From NCBI GenBank assembly GCA_002311635.1, contig DBZJ01000140.1, forward strand, positions 1 to 12,157: a DNA stretch of 12,157 nucleotides. The letters are read 5' to 3'. This stretch comes from Syntrophaceae bacterium UBA1163 (GTDB lineage Bacteria; Desulfobacterota; BSN033; UBA1163). Both the position numbers and the translations under genes were made by a program. The notes beneath the pieces are model-generated. The model did no database searches and had not been told where the DNA came from. It saw nothing but the letters and a program-made list of their open reading frames with translations. Numbering within the stretch: the stretch's first letter is position 1; every line of letters starts with the position of its first letter. Below are positions 3,517 through 8,231 of the stretch, piece after piece.

Positions 3517-3681
3517 ATTGAAAGTTGGCATTCATTTGGAGTTTGTGATTTTAAACTGTGTTAGGTTCTCCGGCGGAGCCGGGGGCAAGGAATATCGTGG
3601 TCTCTTCCCGGGAGGACAAGACAAATGTCAGGTGATCGTCCGAGAGGGAGGAGACTTTCTGTTTAAGGGAGAGGAGTGACT

Positions 3682-6600
3682 ATGGCCAGCGTTGTCCCGG
3701 TCTATCGAAGGTATCGGAAGAACTTTTCAAAAATTAAGGAAGTCTTGGAAATCTCCAATCTGATCGACGTTCAGAAAAGATCCTACGAGCAGTTTCTACA
3801 AGCCAGTGGAGATCCGGACAAACGGGAACCCACTGGACTTCAGGCCGTCTTTAGAACCGTCTTTCCGATCAAGGATTTTTACGAAACCGCTTCTCTTGAA
3901 TTCGTCAACTATCGTCTCACCGAGCCGAAATATGACGTGGAAGAATGCCTGCTCAGAGGGATGACCTATGCGGCACCCGTTAAGGTGACGGTCCGTTTAG
4001 TGGTCTGGGATGTGAATGAAGAGACCAAGGCCAAGAGCATCAAAGCCGTAAAAGAGCAAGAAGTCTATTTTGGCGAAATCCCCCTGATGACCGAAAACGG
4101 AACGTTTATTGTGAACGGGACCGAAAGGGTGATTGTCAGCCAACTCCATCGCTCCCCCGGCGTCTTTTTCGATCAGGATCAGGTCAAACCCCACAGCGGC
4201 GGGAAGGTCTTCTACTATGGGCGGATTATCCCCTACCGGGGCTCTTGGATTGATTTCGAGTTTGATCAGAAAGATCTTCTCCATGTTCGGATCGACCGAC
4301 GTCGAAAGATTCCTGTCACCGTCCTCCTTCGAGCTCTCAAGTACACCGGACAGGAGCTTTTGGACTACTTCTATCATAAGGAAACGGTCCTGATTCGAAG
4401 AGGGAAGTTCCAAAAGGAGATTTCAGAAGAGGTGCTGGTGGGTCAAAAGGCGACCTCTGACATTTTGGACCCCAAAACCCACAAGATCATCCTCAAAAAA
4501 CATCGCCGCATTACGGAAGACGCTTTCAAGAAATTGGAATTGGCCAAGATCAACACCATTTCGGTAGAAGTCCAAGACCTGATCGGTCGATACCTGGCGA
4601 AGGATGTGGTCGACCCCGAAACAGGAGAAGTCGTTGCCGAATGTAATGACCAGGTGACCGAAAAGCTTCTCAACGAGATGAAAGAGAGAAAGATCGAATC
4701 CTTCGAGATCCTGTTCATCGATAACATCAATGTCAGCTCTTCGTTGCGAGATACGCTGGTGGCGGATAAGATTGGCCTGACCCGAGAGGAAAGGGAGAAG
4801 TTACCCGCTGTGGAGCCGGGTAAATCCCTTCGAGAGAAGGAGTCCGAGAGGGCCCTCCTGGACATCTACAAAAGACTTCGCCCCGGGGATCCTCCCACCA
4901 TTGAGACAGCCAGCGGCCTCTTCTACAATCTTTTCTTCAACCCCGAACGCTACGACCTCTCTAAAGTGGGAAGGATGAAGTTGAACCATAAACTCGGTCT
5001 CAAGGGGAATCCCCCTAAGGTGTTGGTTTTCACCGAGAGATTGAAGAAAGAGGCGTTAGCGGCCGGAGCGACCTATGCAGGGGGAAGAGAGCTGGTCGAT
5101 CGCATCTCGGAGGGATGGCTTGATTTTGACGAAGCGATTGCCACTCCGGAGATGGCTGAGGAGATTCAACGGATCGCCAAGATCCTTCATCCGATTGGAC
5201 TGATGCCTTCGCTGAAGGAGGGAACCATCACGGATGATGTCCGAGGAAGGATTCGAAAGATCTCGGAAGATGAGAAGACAACCTTGAGAAGGAGAGACAT
5301 TCTGGAGGTCGTCCAATACTTGATCAAACTCAAGGATGGTCAGGGTGCGGTCGACGATATTGACCACTTGGGAAACCGGCGGGTGAGGACCGTTGGGGAG
5401 CTCTTGGAAAACCAGTATCACATCGGGTTGGTGAGAATTGAAAGGGCGATCAAAGAGCGGATGAGCCTTCAAGACATAGAGACGTTGATGCCCCATGATC
5501 TCATCAACTCAAAACCCCTGTCGGCGGTGATCAAGGAGTTTTTCGGATCGAGTCAACTTTCCCAGTTTATGGATCAGACCAACCCACTGTCAGAGATCAC
5601 GCACAAGCGTCGCCTCTCTGCCCTGGGTCCCGGAGGGCTCACTCGGGAGAGGGCGGGATTCGAGGTCAGGGACGTCCATCCCACCCACTATGGGCGAATC
5701 TGTCCCATTGAAACCCCGGAGGGGCCGAACATCGGCCTGATCACTTCTCTCAGCACCTATGCCCGTGTCAATGATTATGGTTTTATTGAGACGCCTTATC
5801 GGGAAGTGATCAACGGAAAGGTCACGAATAACATCCGATATCTTTTTGCCCTGGATGAGGAAGAAGAGATCGACGGTCACAAACCCGCCATCGCTCAGGC
5901 CAATGCTCCCTTGGATAGAGAAGGGAGGTTTACCGTCCCGCTCATTTCGGCCCGAAGAGGGGGCGAATTTGTGATGGTGAGACCTGAGGAAATTCGGTAT
6001 ATGGATGTTTCTCCAAAACAGTTGGTAAGTGTGGCCACCTCTCTCGTTCCCTTCTTGGAGAACGATGATGCCAACCGTGCCCTGATGGGATCGAATATGC
6101 AACGCCAGGCCGTTCCCCTTCTCAAAACGGATGCCCCGCTGATTGGAACGGGGATGGAAGCCATTGTGGCCAGAGATTCCGGGGTGACAGTGGTGGCCAA
6201 GAGGAGCGGGGTCGTGGAAGATGTGGATGCTTCTCGAATCGTCATCCGTGCCGATGAGGACGGTCAGAAAGAGGATGATCCGGGAGTCGACATTTATACG
6301 TTAATCAAATACAAACGATCCAACCAGAACACCTGTATTAATCAGAGGCCGATTGTCCGTATCGGTGAGCGGGTCAAAAAGGGTGAGGTGATTGCCGACG
6401 GGCCTGCCACCCATATGGGAGAGCTGGCGCTAGGGAAGAATGTCCTGGTAGGGTTCATGCCCTGGGGAGGGTACAACTTTGAGGACTCCATCCTCATCAG
6501 TGAAAAGCTATTGAAAGAAGATACCTACACCTCGATCCATATCGAGGAATTGGAGTGTGTGGCTCGCGATACGAAACTGGGCAAAGAGGAGATCACCTGT

Positions 6601-8142
6601 GATATCCCTAACGCCGGGGAAGAGGCCCTGAAGGATCTCGATCAGAGCGGAATCATTCGGGTTGGAGCCGAGGTGAACCCCGGCGACATTCTGGTTGGAA
6701 AAGTGACCCCGAAGGGAGAAACCCAACTCTCTCCGGAGGAAAAACTCCTTCGAGCTGTCTTTGGTGAAAAAGCAGGAGATGTTCGAGATACCTCGTTGAG
6801 GGTCCCTCACGGGATCGAAGGAATTGTCATCGATGCCAAAGTTTTTTCACGCAAGGGGCAGGAGAGGGATGAGAGGACAAAAACCATCGAGGACCAAGAG
6901 AAGGCGCGGCTGCTGAAAAACCAGGCGGATGAGATCCGGATCATCCAGAACAGTACGCGGAGAAAGATCGGGAAATATCTCATCGACAAAAAAGCCGCCC
7001 ATAAGATAGGGGATGAGAAGAAAGGCCGCGTCTATCTGGAGGCGAAAGAGCGGCTCAAGGAAGAACATCTCTTTGCGATCCCCTTCGATCGACTCAAGGA
7101 GATTGATGTGATCGAGGGGAAGAGAGTTCTTCCCGACGTTCAACGTTTTCTCGACCATGCAGAACTCCAGATCAATGTGGTGAAGGGAGTCTTTGGAGAT
7201 AAGCTGGCCAAACTGAAGAGAGGAGACGAACTGGCTCCGGGCGTCATCAAGACGGTCAAAGTCTACATCGCCATGAAGCGAAAGCTTTCTGTCGGGGATA
7301 AAATGTCCGGACGTCATGGGAACAAAGGGATCATTTCCAGAATTCTCCCCGAGGAAGACATGCCGTATTTAGAGGATGGGACCCCGGTCGAAATCATCCT
7401 CAATCCATTAGGCGTCCCCTCACGAATGAATGTGGGCCAAATTCTTGAGACCCACCTGGGATGGGCTGCGAAGGGCCTGGGATGGAAGATTGAGGAATAT
7501 TTGGAGAAACACTTCAACCCCAAATTGCTTCGAAGAAGAATTAAGGAAATCTATTCCTCAAAAGAGGTGAATGAATACCTGGAGCAGGCGACCGATGACG
7601 AGATTGTCGAGCTGGCCCGGAAGCTGGGTGAAGGAATTTTCGTCTCGGTCCCTGTGTTCGACGGAGCTTCGGAGGAAGAGATCAAGGATCTCTTGAAGAG
7701 AGCCGGACTTCCGACCACTGGGCAAACGATTCTCTATGACGGGAGGACGGGGGAACCTTTCCACCAGAAGGTGACCATAGGCTATATGTACCTCCTCAAA
7801 TTGCACCACCTCGTAGACGACAAGATCCATGCCCGATCCATCGGCCCTTATTCTTTGGTGACCCAACAGCCCTTGGGTGGAAAAGCTCAGTTCGGAGGGC
7901 AACGGTTAGGGGAGATGGAGGTGTGGGCCTTGGAGGCCTATGGAGCGGCCCATTCCTTGCAGGAATTCTTGACGGTTAAGTCGGACGATGTCGCGGGAAG
8001 GACTCGAGTCTATGAGGCGATCGTCAAAGGAGAGCACACGCTGGAGCCTGGATTGCCCGAGTCGTTTAACGTGCTGGTCAAAGAATTACAGAGCCTTTGT
8101 TTGGATACCGAATTGATCGAAGAAAAGAGAGAAGAAATTTAA
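3682..8142 (+). CDS. rpoB: RNA polymerase beta subunit with an embedded L1-like domain
   Basis: This is the beta subunit of RNA polymerase, 1486 residues against 1342 in E. coli. ATG at 3682 is chosen over a GTG two codons upstream because GGAG ends 6 bases before it. Conserved parts run in order: N-terminal protrusion and lobe (with I-I-P-Y-R-G-S-W), the fork/rifampicin region S-S-Q-L-S-Q-F-M-D (623-631), the block [24 protein letters not shown] region, and [12 protein letters not shown], with K1207 and K1215 matching E. coli K1065 and K1073. D631, H641 and S646 match E. coli D516, H526 and S531, so the rifampicin pocket looks wild type. Lineage inserts of the proteobacterial type are present in the lobe and near 1050-1180. 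Two further oddities are a charged segment at 360-391 and an L1 domain II-like insert at about 447-527. The frame is open throughout. Confidence 0.97.
5020..5262 (+). other. ribosomal protein L1 domain II-like insert inside RpoB
   Basis: RpoB residues 447-527 align with L1 residues 75-156 from the same window. After a shared V-L-V-F and a one-residue gap, 72 aligned residues have 38 identities, including K-E-A-L, A-G-A, G-W-L-D-F-D, A-I-A-T-P, K-I-L, G-L-M-P and G-T. The insert lies between the beta segment [12 protein letters not shown] and the beta segment R-R-R-D-I-L-E-V-V, replacing a loop of about 13 residues in E. coli (about positions 405-417). L1 domain II is itself an inserted domain in L1, with termini close together, so it is well suited to insertion in a loop. 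L1 domain I, the main RNA-binding part in studied L1 proteins, is absent. What the insert does is unknown. Confidence 0.9.
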
Positions 8143-8145
8143 TAT

Positions 8146-8213
8146 CGCAAAGCGCAGAGCGCAAAGCGCATAGCGAAGTTCTTTGCTATGCGCCATGCTC
8201 TATGCGCTATGCT
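8146..8213 (+). repeat. heptad-repeat palindrome between rpoB and rpoC
   Basis: The left arm is four 7-base units (CGCAAAG, CGCAGAG, CGCAAAG, CGCATAG). The centre is CGAAG-TT-CTTTG. The right arm is four units of the opposite orientation (CTATGCG, CCATGCT, CTATGCG, CTATGCT). The arms are 33 bases each around TT. The inner 13 bp (8166-8178 with 8181-8193) pair with one G-T, and outer units pair imperfectly. It starts 3 bases after the rpoB stop and ends 7 bases before the rpoC ribosome binding site. No T-run follows. It may be a dispersed intergenic repeat and/or an RNA structure that tunes rpoC. Confidence 0.85.
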
Positions 8214-8220
8214 TTCTAAA

Positions 8221-8226
8221 AGGAGG
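8221..8226 (+). promoter_or_regulatory. ribosome binding site that fixes the TTG start of rpoC
   Basis: A perfect AGGAGG lies 5 bases before TTG at 8232. No ATG occurs near the conserved N-terminus in that frame, so this site decides the start. Confidence 0.85.
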
Positions 8227-8231
8227 CAACC

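What the first reader, a model, noticed from the sequence alone, without database searches (positions are those of the whole stretch)
5020..5262. A complete L1 domain II is embedded in the RNA polymerase beta subunit
Seen directly: RpoB 447-527 aligns with L1 75-156 (rplA in this window) with 38 identities in 72 gap-free positions plus V-L-V-F, while both flanks are ordinary beta sequence in the same frame. Established: L1 (Pfam Ribosomal_L1, PF00687) has a two-part domain I and an inserted domain II spanning about residues 68-159. The copied segment matches that domain boundary, so it looks like transfer of a folding unit. Inference: this is a ribosome-polymerase chimera of a universal essential protein, which I do not recognise as a described beta insert. 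By E. coli numbering it falls near position 411, in the lobe/protrusion part of beta, and is probably on the surface, where it could bind ribosomal or transcription factors or act as a structural spacer.
Basis: partly seen in the sequence, partly recalled or inferred. Interest (0 to 1): 0.93.

Follow-up and report, generated by a model that had tools for sequence, protein, structure and literature searches.

The report
Ribosomal L1 domain inside RNA polymerase
In one family of uncultured bacteria the essential RNA polymerase beta subunit carries, in its lobe, a copy of one folding domain of ribosomal protein L1, the protein encoded three genes upstream in the same gene cluster, and it has been kept under selection across that family.

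Summary
RpoB (3676-8142) contains an 87-residue in-frame segment (aa 445-531, nt 5008-5268) where a sister family has 3 residues. It aligns to domain II of this window's own L1 (aa 73-156; 38 of 72 gap-free identities). PF00687 hits it at 2.2e-16; L1 scores 70-82 bits against 16 of 16 insert-bearing RpoBs and nothing significant against 3 empty ones. Its model, of modest confidence, matches L1 domain II best. It is not an assembly artefact: 16 of 16 family genomes with a detectable rpoB have it, 132 database proteins have it, one on a 1.2-Mb contig. Three of 3 sister-family rpoBs lack it, and 135 other phylum genomes with an L1 match show none inside a long reading frame. It has one origin and evolves under purifying selection (omega about 0.11), but its net charge turned negative. 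The donor is an L1 gene; the neighbouring rplA is likely, not proven. It lacks L1 domain I, which binds rRNA, so I favour a protein-docking or stabilising lobe module, like beta-i4; function is inferred. It is a new variant of a known kind (lineage-specific beta inserts); my searches found no description.

The parts
5008..5268 (+). L1-domain-II-like insert in RpoB, aa 445-531 (87 aa), defined against the empty site of sister families
   Evidence: 87 aa in 16 of 16 family genomes, 3 aa at the same place in L064
5014..5262 (+). core aligned to L1 73-156 (RpoB aa 447-529)
   Evidence: alignment; 38 of 72 identical in the gap-free part
3676..8142 (+). rpoB, RNA polymerase beta subunit (1488 aa from GTG; 1486 from the ATG at 3682)
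   Evidence: TIGR02013 1841.6 bits; full-length database relatives are mostly 1486 aa
1656..2363 (+). rplA, intact ribosomal protein L1 (235 aa)
   Evidence: PF00687 234.4 bits, TIGR01169 339.5 bits
1872..2123 (+). rplA segment for L1 aa 73-156 (domain II), homologous to the insert
   Evidence: domain II = residues 68-159 in PMC4592705 (passage)
4984..5007 (+). 5' junction, RpoB NHKLGLKG (aa 437-444), ordinary beta sequence shared with the empty site
   Evidence: NYKLGLKG in L064
5269..5298 (+). 3' junction, Rpo[11 protein letters not shown] (aa 532-541), ordinary beta sequence
   Evidence: DQTVLRRED in L064

Best explanation
In the ancestor of one bacterial family (relatives carry the labels Syntrophaceae, Deltaproteobacteria, Desulfobacterota or Thermodesulfobacteriota) a stretch of a gene for ribosomal protein L1 coding for domain II was copied in frame into a loop of the lobe of RNA polymerase beta, replacing about three residues (shown: homology, clean junctions, single origin). 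Domain II is itself an insertion within L1 domain I (established, PMC10931766), so its two ends adjoin and it is a natural plug-in module (inferred). The likely source is rplA of the same operon, about 3 kb upstream (inferred, not resolved). The domain probably kept its fold and is maintained by purifying selection (shown, within limits), but its net charge became negative and the L1 GPRG motif became HPIG. It most likely works as other lineage-specific beta inserts are thought to: a module that docks a protein partner or stabilises the lobe, without RNA binding, because RNA binding belongs to L1 domain I, which was not copied (inferred).
For: Homology. Control: L1 scores 70-82 bits against 16 of 16 insert RpoBs; of 3 empty RpoBs two are unreported and one scores -0.5 bits; PF00687 is not among the Pfam matches up to E 1 of the two empty RpoBs scanned. 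Empty site: 3 of 3 sister-family rpoBs found. Retention: 16 of 17 family genomes have it, and the 17th (G016) gave no match for rpoB or L1. Breadth: 128 proteins (120 listed) and 118, 132 distinct among those listed, each listed with PF00687 and Rpb2 domains; P0017 lies on a contig of 1.24 Mb. These overlap with the 16 genomes. Phylum: of 148 genomes 141 have an L1-like match; it lies in an ORF over 1400 aa in 6, all of this family, and in ORFs of at most 499 aa in the other 135. One origin: insert clade 100/100 in a 68-row tree. Constraint: 87 aa in 16 of 16 genomes and in 128 of 130 segmentable database proteins; omega about 0.11 over 69 of 120 pairs. Net charge -3.6 (sd 1.0, n=128) against +0.9 (sd 1.2, n=44) for L1 domain II. 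Precedent: beta-i4 in the same beta2 domain is acidic and needed for normal growth in vivo (PMC2939025, section read).
Against: The neighbouring-rplA origin is not shown: in the free tree the insert joins next to an L1 of another family (L019), and holding it with the family's own L1s costs 7.7 lnL (p-AU 0.34, not rejected; with the class L1s added, 10.7 lnL, p 0.143). The closest L1s by raw similarity are two of sister family f2, not f1. Nothing here shows a partner or a function. The insert evolves faster than L1 domain II (77.9 against 91.8% mean identity) and than the C-side of RpoB (94.9%), which fits weaker constraint. The insert model has mean pLDDT 61.8 and the model with the insert in context failed (pLDDT 43.6), so surface exposure and orientation are inferred from sequence position alone.
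Confidence: 0.72

Rival explanations
1. The insert is a tolerated passenger: it folds, so it does no harm, and purifying selection only reflects the need to fold and not to disturb an essential enzyme.
For: It evolves about 4-fold faster than L1 domain II by omega (0.108 against 0.025) and about as fast as the N-side of RpoB (77.9 against 82.8% identity). Several fixed positions (W481, F484, D485, G508, P511) are the same residues as in L1 and look like fold determinants.
Against: No family genome with a detectable rpoB lacks it (16 of 16), its length is 87 aa in 128 of 130 segmentable proteins, its net charge changed in the whole set, and 10 columns are at least 90% fixed to one residue in the insert and to another in L1 (16 insert and 44 L1 rows).
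Confidence: 0.3
2. The insert acts as an L1 mimic: it binds something that L1 domain II binds on the ribosome, coupling polymerase and ribosome or sensing free L1 partners.
For: 24 of 89 alignment columns are fixed (90% or more) to the same residue in insert and L1.
Against: The conserved L1 motif GPRG is HPIG here and mean net charge went from +0.9 to -3.6. RNA binding of L1 resides in domain I (PMC10931766, passage), which is absent. I recall no role of the L1 stalk in polymerase-ribosome contact; I did not search for one.
Confidence: 0.08
3. The insert contacts nucleic acid (downstream or non-template DNA) and tunes open complexes or pausing.
For: Position only: it lies between two conserved beta elements, one of which leads to the [10 protein letters not shown] segment, which I recall as lying near the transcription bubble.
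Against: Negative net charge, mean -3.6; the other lobe insert, beta-i4, is acidic and was modelled with a gap of about 15 A to the DNA (PMC2939025).
Confidence: 0.1
4. Artefact: mis-assembly or chimeric contig, or chance similarity.
For: The window genome is a 248-contig draft.
Against: 16 family assemblies and 132 listed database proteins (overlapping sets), one on a 1.24-Mb contig; 44.8% identity with L1 is too divergent for an assembly join; shuffles reach at most 62 against 230.
Confidence: 0.01

Closest known systems
Ribosomal protein uL1, domain II (part of PF00687; residues 68-159)
   Same: Sequence (38 of 72 identical to this genome's L1), best fold matches of the model are L1
   Different: Sits in RpoB without domain I; GPRG is HPIG; negative instead of slightly positive net charge
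beta-i4 (SI1, dispensable region I), the BEAN-type lineage-specific insert of E. coli beta (PMC2939025, PMC11515920)
   Same: Lineage-specific domain inserted into the same beta2/beta-uD2 lobe; negatively charged
   Different: beta-i4 is a BBM2/BEAN fold at about E. coli 225-345; this one is L1-like and follows the residue aligned with E. coli 409. This RpoB also seems to have a beta-i4-like part (RpoB 271-345 resembles RpoC, E 2.9e-4; the assignment to beta-i4 is mine)
BEAN domain shared by bacterial RNAP and archaeal ribosomal protein uL10 (PMC11515920)
   Same: An insertional domain shared between RNA polymerase and a ribosomal protein of the same kind of gene neighbourhood
   Different: There the shared domain is BEAN and its source is unknown; here the domain is a regular part of L1 and new only in RpoB, so the direction L1 to RpoB is clear

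Membership tests
Ribosomal_L1 domain II (PF00687) | Significant profile match over domain II | tested here: met
   60.4 bits, cut-off 32.2, E 2.2e-16; TIGR01169 444-529 E 1.3e-22
Ribosomal_L1 domain II (PF00687) | Domain II fold | tested here: met
Ribosomal protein uL1 (whole) | Domain I, which binds rRNA and mRNA | tested here: not met
   Best stretch covers profile positions 22-138 of 198 only, and both flanks are RpoB; so it is not an L1 protein
RNA polymerase beta subunit (TIGR02013) | Full-length match over cut-off | tested here: met
   1841.6 bits, cut-off 801.15, residues 12-1479
Lineage-specific RNAP beta insert | Large insertion between shared regions, present in one lineage and absent in others | tested here: met
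   87 aa in 16 of 16 family rpoBs, absent in 3 of 3 sister rpoBs
BEAN domain (CATH 3.90.105.10) | BEAN sequence or fold | tested here: inconclusive
   No BEAN profile was run on the insert; the best sequence and fold matches are L1

The most novel reading that the evidence does not exclude
A universal enzyme acquired a ready-made domain from a neighbouring gene of its own operon, and the captured ribosomal domain gave RNA polymerase a new partner, possibly one shared with the ribosome, so that the polymerase of this family is wired to translation through an L1 domain.
Probability: 0.08. Interest if true: 0.95.

Novelty: new variant of a known kind. Interest (0 to 1): 0.76.

Why it matters
[quoted passage not shown] Here donor family, empty site, insert and an intact copy of the donor gene close by are all visible, and the event is confined to one family as far as sampled. 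That makes the neighbourhood idea testable. It also shows a folding unit moved from one universal machine to another and kept.

Tried and rejected
Structure of RpoB 1-695 with the insert in place: mean pLDDT 43.6, unusable; no statement about orientation rests on it. A shallow alignment is the likely cause (23 sequences, 84-94% identical to the first).

Donor by tree: unresolved; 87 columns are too few. Rows not used or dropped: L025 (pattern not found); L075, L081, L088, L089, L093 (duplicates); L068-L071 and L073 (repeat loci of family L1s); three insert rows that came out empty (P0119, P0128, P0110). Only 12 of the family's L1s were used. The 29 phylum L1s are those with loci from the best-scoring matches, not an even draw, and only two L1s came from other phyla.

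Recombination seed at the 5' junction: RpoB 415-443 resembles L1 44-72 in register (score 28; 1 of 299,322 other 29-residue pairs scores as high; empty-site f3 21, f2 1), but the DNA shows little (35.6% identity; 6.5% of in-frame background windows as high). The stretch was chosen after seeing the alignment, so I do not build on it.

Omega values rest on near-saturated synonymous sites (mean pS 0.64-0.75); only the ranking is used.

Papers: searches found no paper with their terms. Searches listed RNA polymerase papers; from these I opened PMC11515920 (abstract and outline, passages, sections 2.1, 2.2, 2.6, 3.2 and Methods) and PMC2939025 (passages and the beta-i4 section). From the L1 search I saw passages of PMC10931766 and PMC4592705. 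None of what I saw names an L1 domain in RpoB. The library is open-access only; the survey of inserts by Lane and colleagues that PMC2939025 cites was not in my listings and I did not look it up by id. The precomputed Pfam column already lists PF00687 in these RpoBs, so databases show it without comment.

Full report
What is there. The window is a tRNA-Trp, secE, nusG, rplK, rplA, rplJ, rplL, rpoB, rpoC cluster (rplA and rpoB are named by profile, the other proteins by my reading of their sequence and order). PF00687 gives 60.4 bits and TIGR01169 matches 444-529 at 1.3e-22. The whole genome has two PF00687 matches, rplA and this one.

Boundaries. Sister families of the same class show the empty site. 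L064 reads KLGLKG-VPE-DQTVLRRED where the window reads KLGLKG-[87 aa][10 protein letters not shown]. The insert is 87 aa in 16 of 16 family genomes. Of 132 database proteins 130 could be cut out by pattern; in 128 of them it is 87 aa and in two 91. The aligned L1 block is 73-156. The hinge glycines published as 67, 69 and 159 (PMC4592705, passage) are G68, G70 and G159 here, all outside that block, so the segment is domain II without the hinge. Domain II is described as an insertion in domain I that can be deleted, with RNA binding in domain I and domain II stabilising the complex (PMC10931766, passage).

Controls. L1 finds 16 of 16 insert-bearing RpoBs at 70-82 bits; of 3 empty RpoBs one is reported at -0.5 bits and two not at all. 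PF00687 is not among the Pfam matches up to E 1 of two empty RpoBs. In the three alignments to solved beta chains that I saw, RpoB matches up to residue 440-442 and again from 529-536, with the insert left out; the insert alone finds 44 distinct solved sequences, named as L1 proteins.

Distribution. Of 59 relatives, 17 are in the family; 16 have the insert, and the one without (G016) has neither an L1 nor an rpoB match. Of 6 other genomes of the class, rpoB was found in 3 and all 3 lack it. In 148 genomes drawn from the phylum, 141 have an L1-like match; it lies inside an ORF over 1400 aa only in the 6 family members, and in ORFs of at most 499 aa in the other 135. I did not look at rpoB itself in those. 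In 5.8 billion proteins, one search found 128 (120 listed, identity to the query 72% or more) and search 2, from a divergent member, found 118 (all listed, 62% or more, weakest E 4.1e-32); 132 are distinct among those listed. One search has no tail of weak hits. Both searches need shared 5-residue words, so an independent capture elsewhere could be missed. In genome contigs 99 stretches matched and 5 loci were confirmed: Syntrophaceae bacterium UBA2188, L.E.D.11_1 and L.E.D.62, Deltaproteobacteria bacterium CROMO_BS_46_3, and one uncultured bin. Their insert regions are identical in the printed stretch to L004, L006, L011, L009 and L005, so they are probably among the 16 genomes and not extra cases.

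Evolution. The direction is L1 to RpoB: L1 is found over the cut-off in 14 of 14 control genomes, domain II is its regular part (the fold matches include archaeal and eukaryotic L1), and the RpoB copy is known from one family. The inserts form one clade (100/100) on a long stem. Which L1 was the donor is not resolved: holding inserts with the family's own L1s is not rejected (p-AU 0.339), nor with the class L1s added (0.143), and the free tree prefers neither; the highest raw scores are with two L1s of sister family f2. The neighbouring rplA, 2.9 kb upstream, is the economical source, and a published suggestion is that such neighbours (uL1, uL11, NusG) may have influenced inserts (PMC11515920 section 3.2), but this is inference.

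Selection and change. Mean pairwise identity over 12 genomes, 66 pairs: insert 77.9%, 250 aa of RpoB before it 82.8%, 250 aa after it 94.9%, L1 domain II 91.8%. Omega over 69 of 120 pairs (those with insert pS below 0.70): 0.108 for the insert, 0.014 for the C-flank, 0.025 for L1 domain II, with synonymous sites near saturation. So it is constrained, less than L1 itself. Of 89 alignment columns (16 insert and 44 L1 rows), 24 are at least 90% fixed to the same residue in both sets and 11 are fixed but different, one of these a gap in the insert. The L1 consensus [10 protein letters not shown] reads HPIGMMPSLK in the insert. Mean net charge is -3.6 (128 sequences) against +0.9 for L1 domain II (44); where on the surface the charge sits was not tested.

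How it most likely works. Shown: a conserved L1 domain II with negative net charge in the lobe, in one family. Inferred: it stands on the surface and docks a protein or steadies the lobe, as suggested for beta-i4, whose deletion is mild in vitro but impairs growth in vivo (PMC2939025). RNA binding is unlikely because domain I is missing and the charge is negative. A passenger that is merely kept foldable is the main rival. My odds for function alone: docking or stabilising 0.5, passenger 0.3, nucleic acid 0.1, L1 mimic 0.08; identity and single origin 0.97. The 0.72 given for the best explanation is for the account as a whole, in which the function is marked as inferred.

Novelty. Lineage-specific beta inserts are a known kind. 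The 2024 survey assigns most beta inserts to BEAN and lists no L1 domain in the parts I read; it used a limited set of proteomes and left out insertions under 50 residues. My searches of print showed no description of this one. I call it a new variant of a known kind.

Noticed in passing
window 4918-5004 and 1785-1871: RpoB 415-443 resembles L1 44-72 in the same register just upstream of the insert (score 28, reached by 1 of 299,322 other pairs), mostly in residues native to beta; little DNA similarity.
   Followed up: partly
P0130 and P0132: Two database RpoBs have four extra residues inside the insert, after the ATPE motif.
   Followed up: no
window 8143-8231: The rpoB-rpoC spacer is built of near-repeats of GCGCAAAGCGCA/TATGCGC type, which looks unusual to me between these two genes.
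   Followed up: no
window 8232: rpoC appears to start at TTG behind AAGGAGG.
   Followed up: no
window RpoB about 366-390: About 20 residues (around [18 protein letters not shown]) have no counterpart in the three solved beta chains aligned, so there may be a second small insert in the lobe.
   Followed up: no
G016: The only family genome without the insert has neither an rpoB nor an L1 match, although listed as 87% complete.
   Followed up: partly
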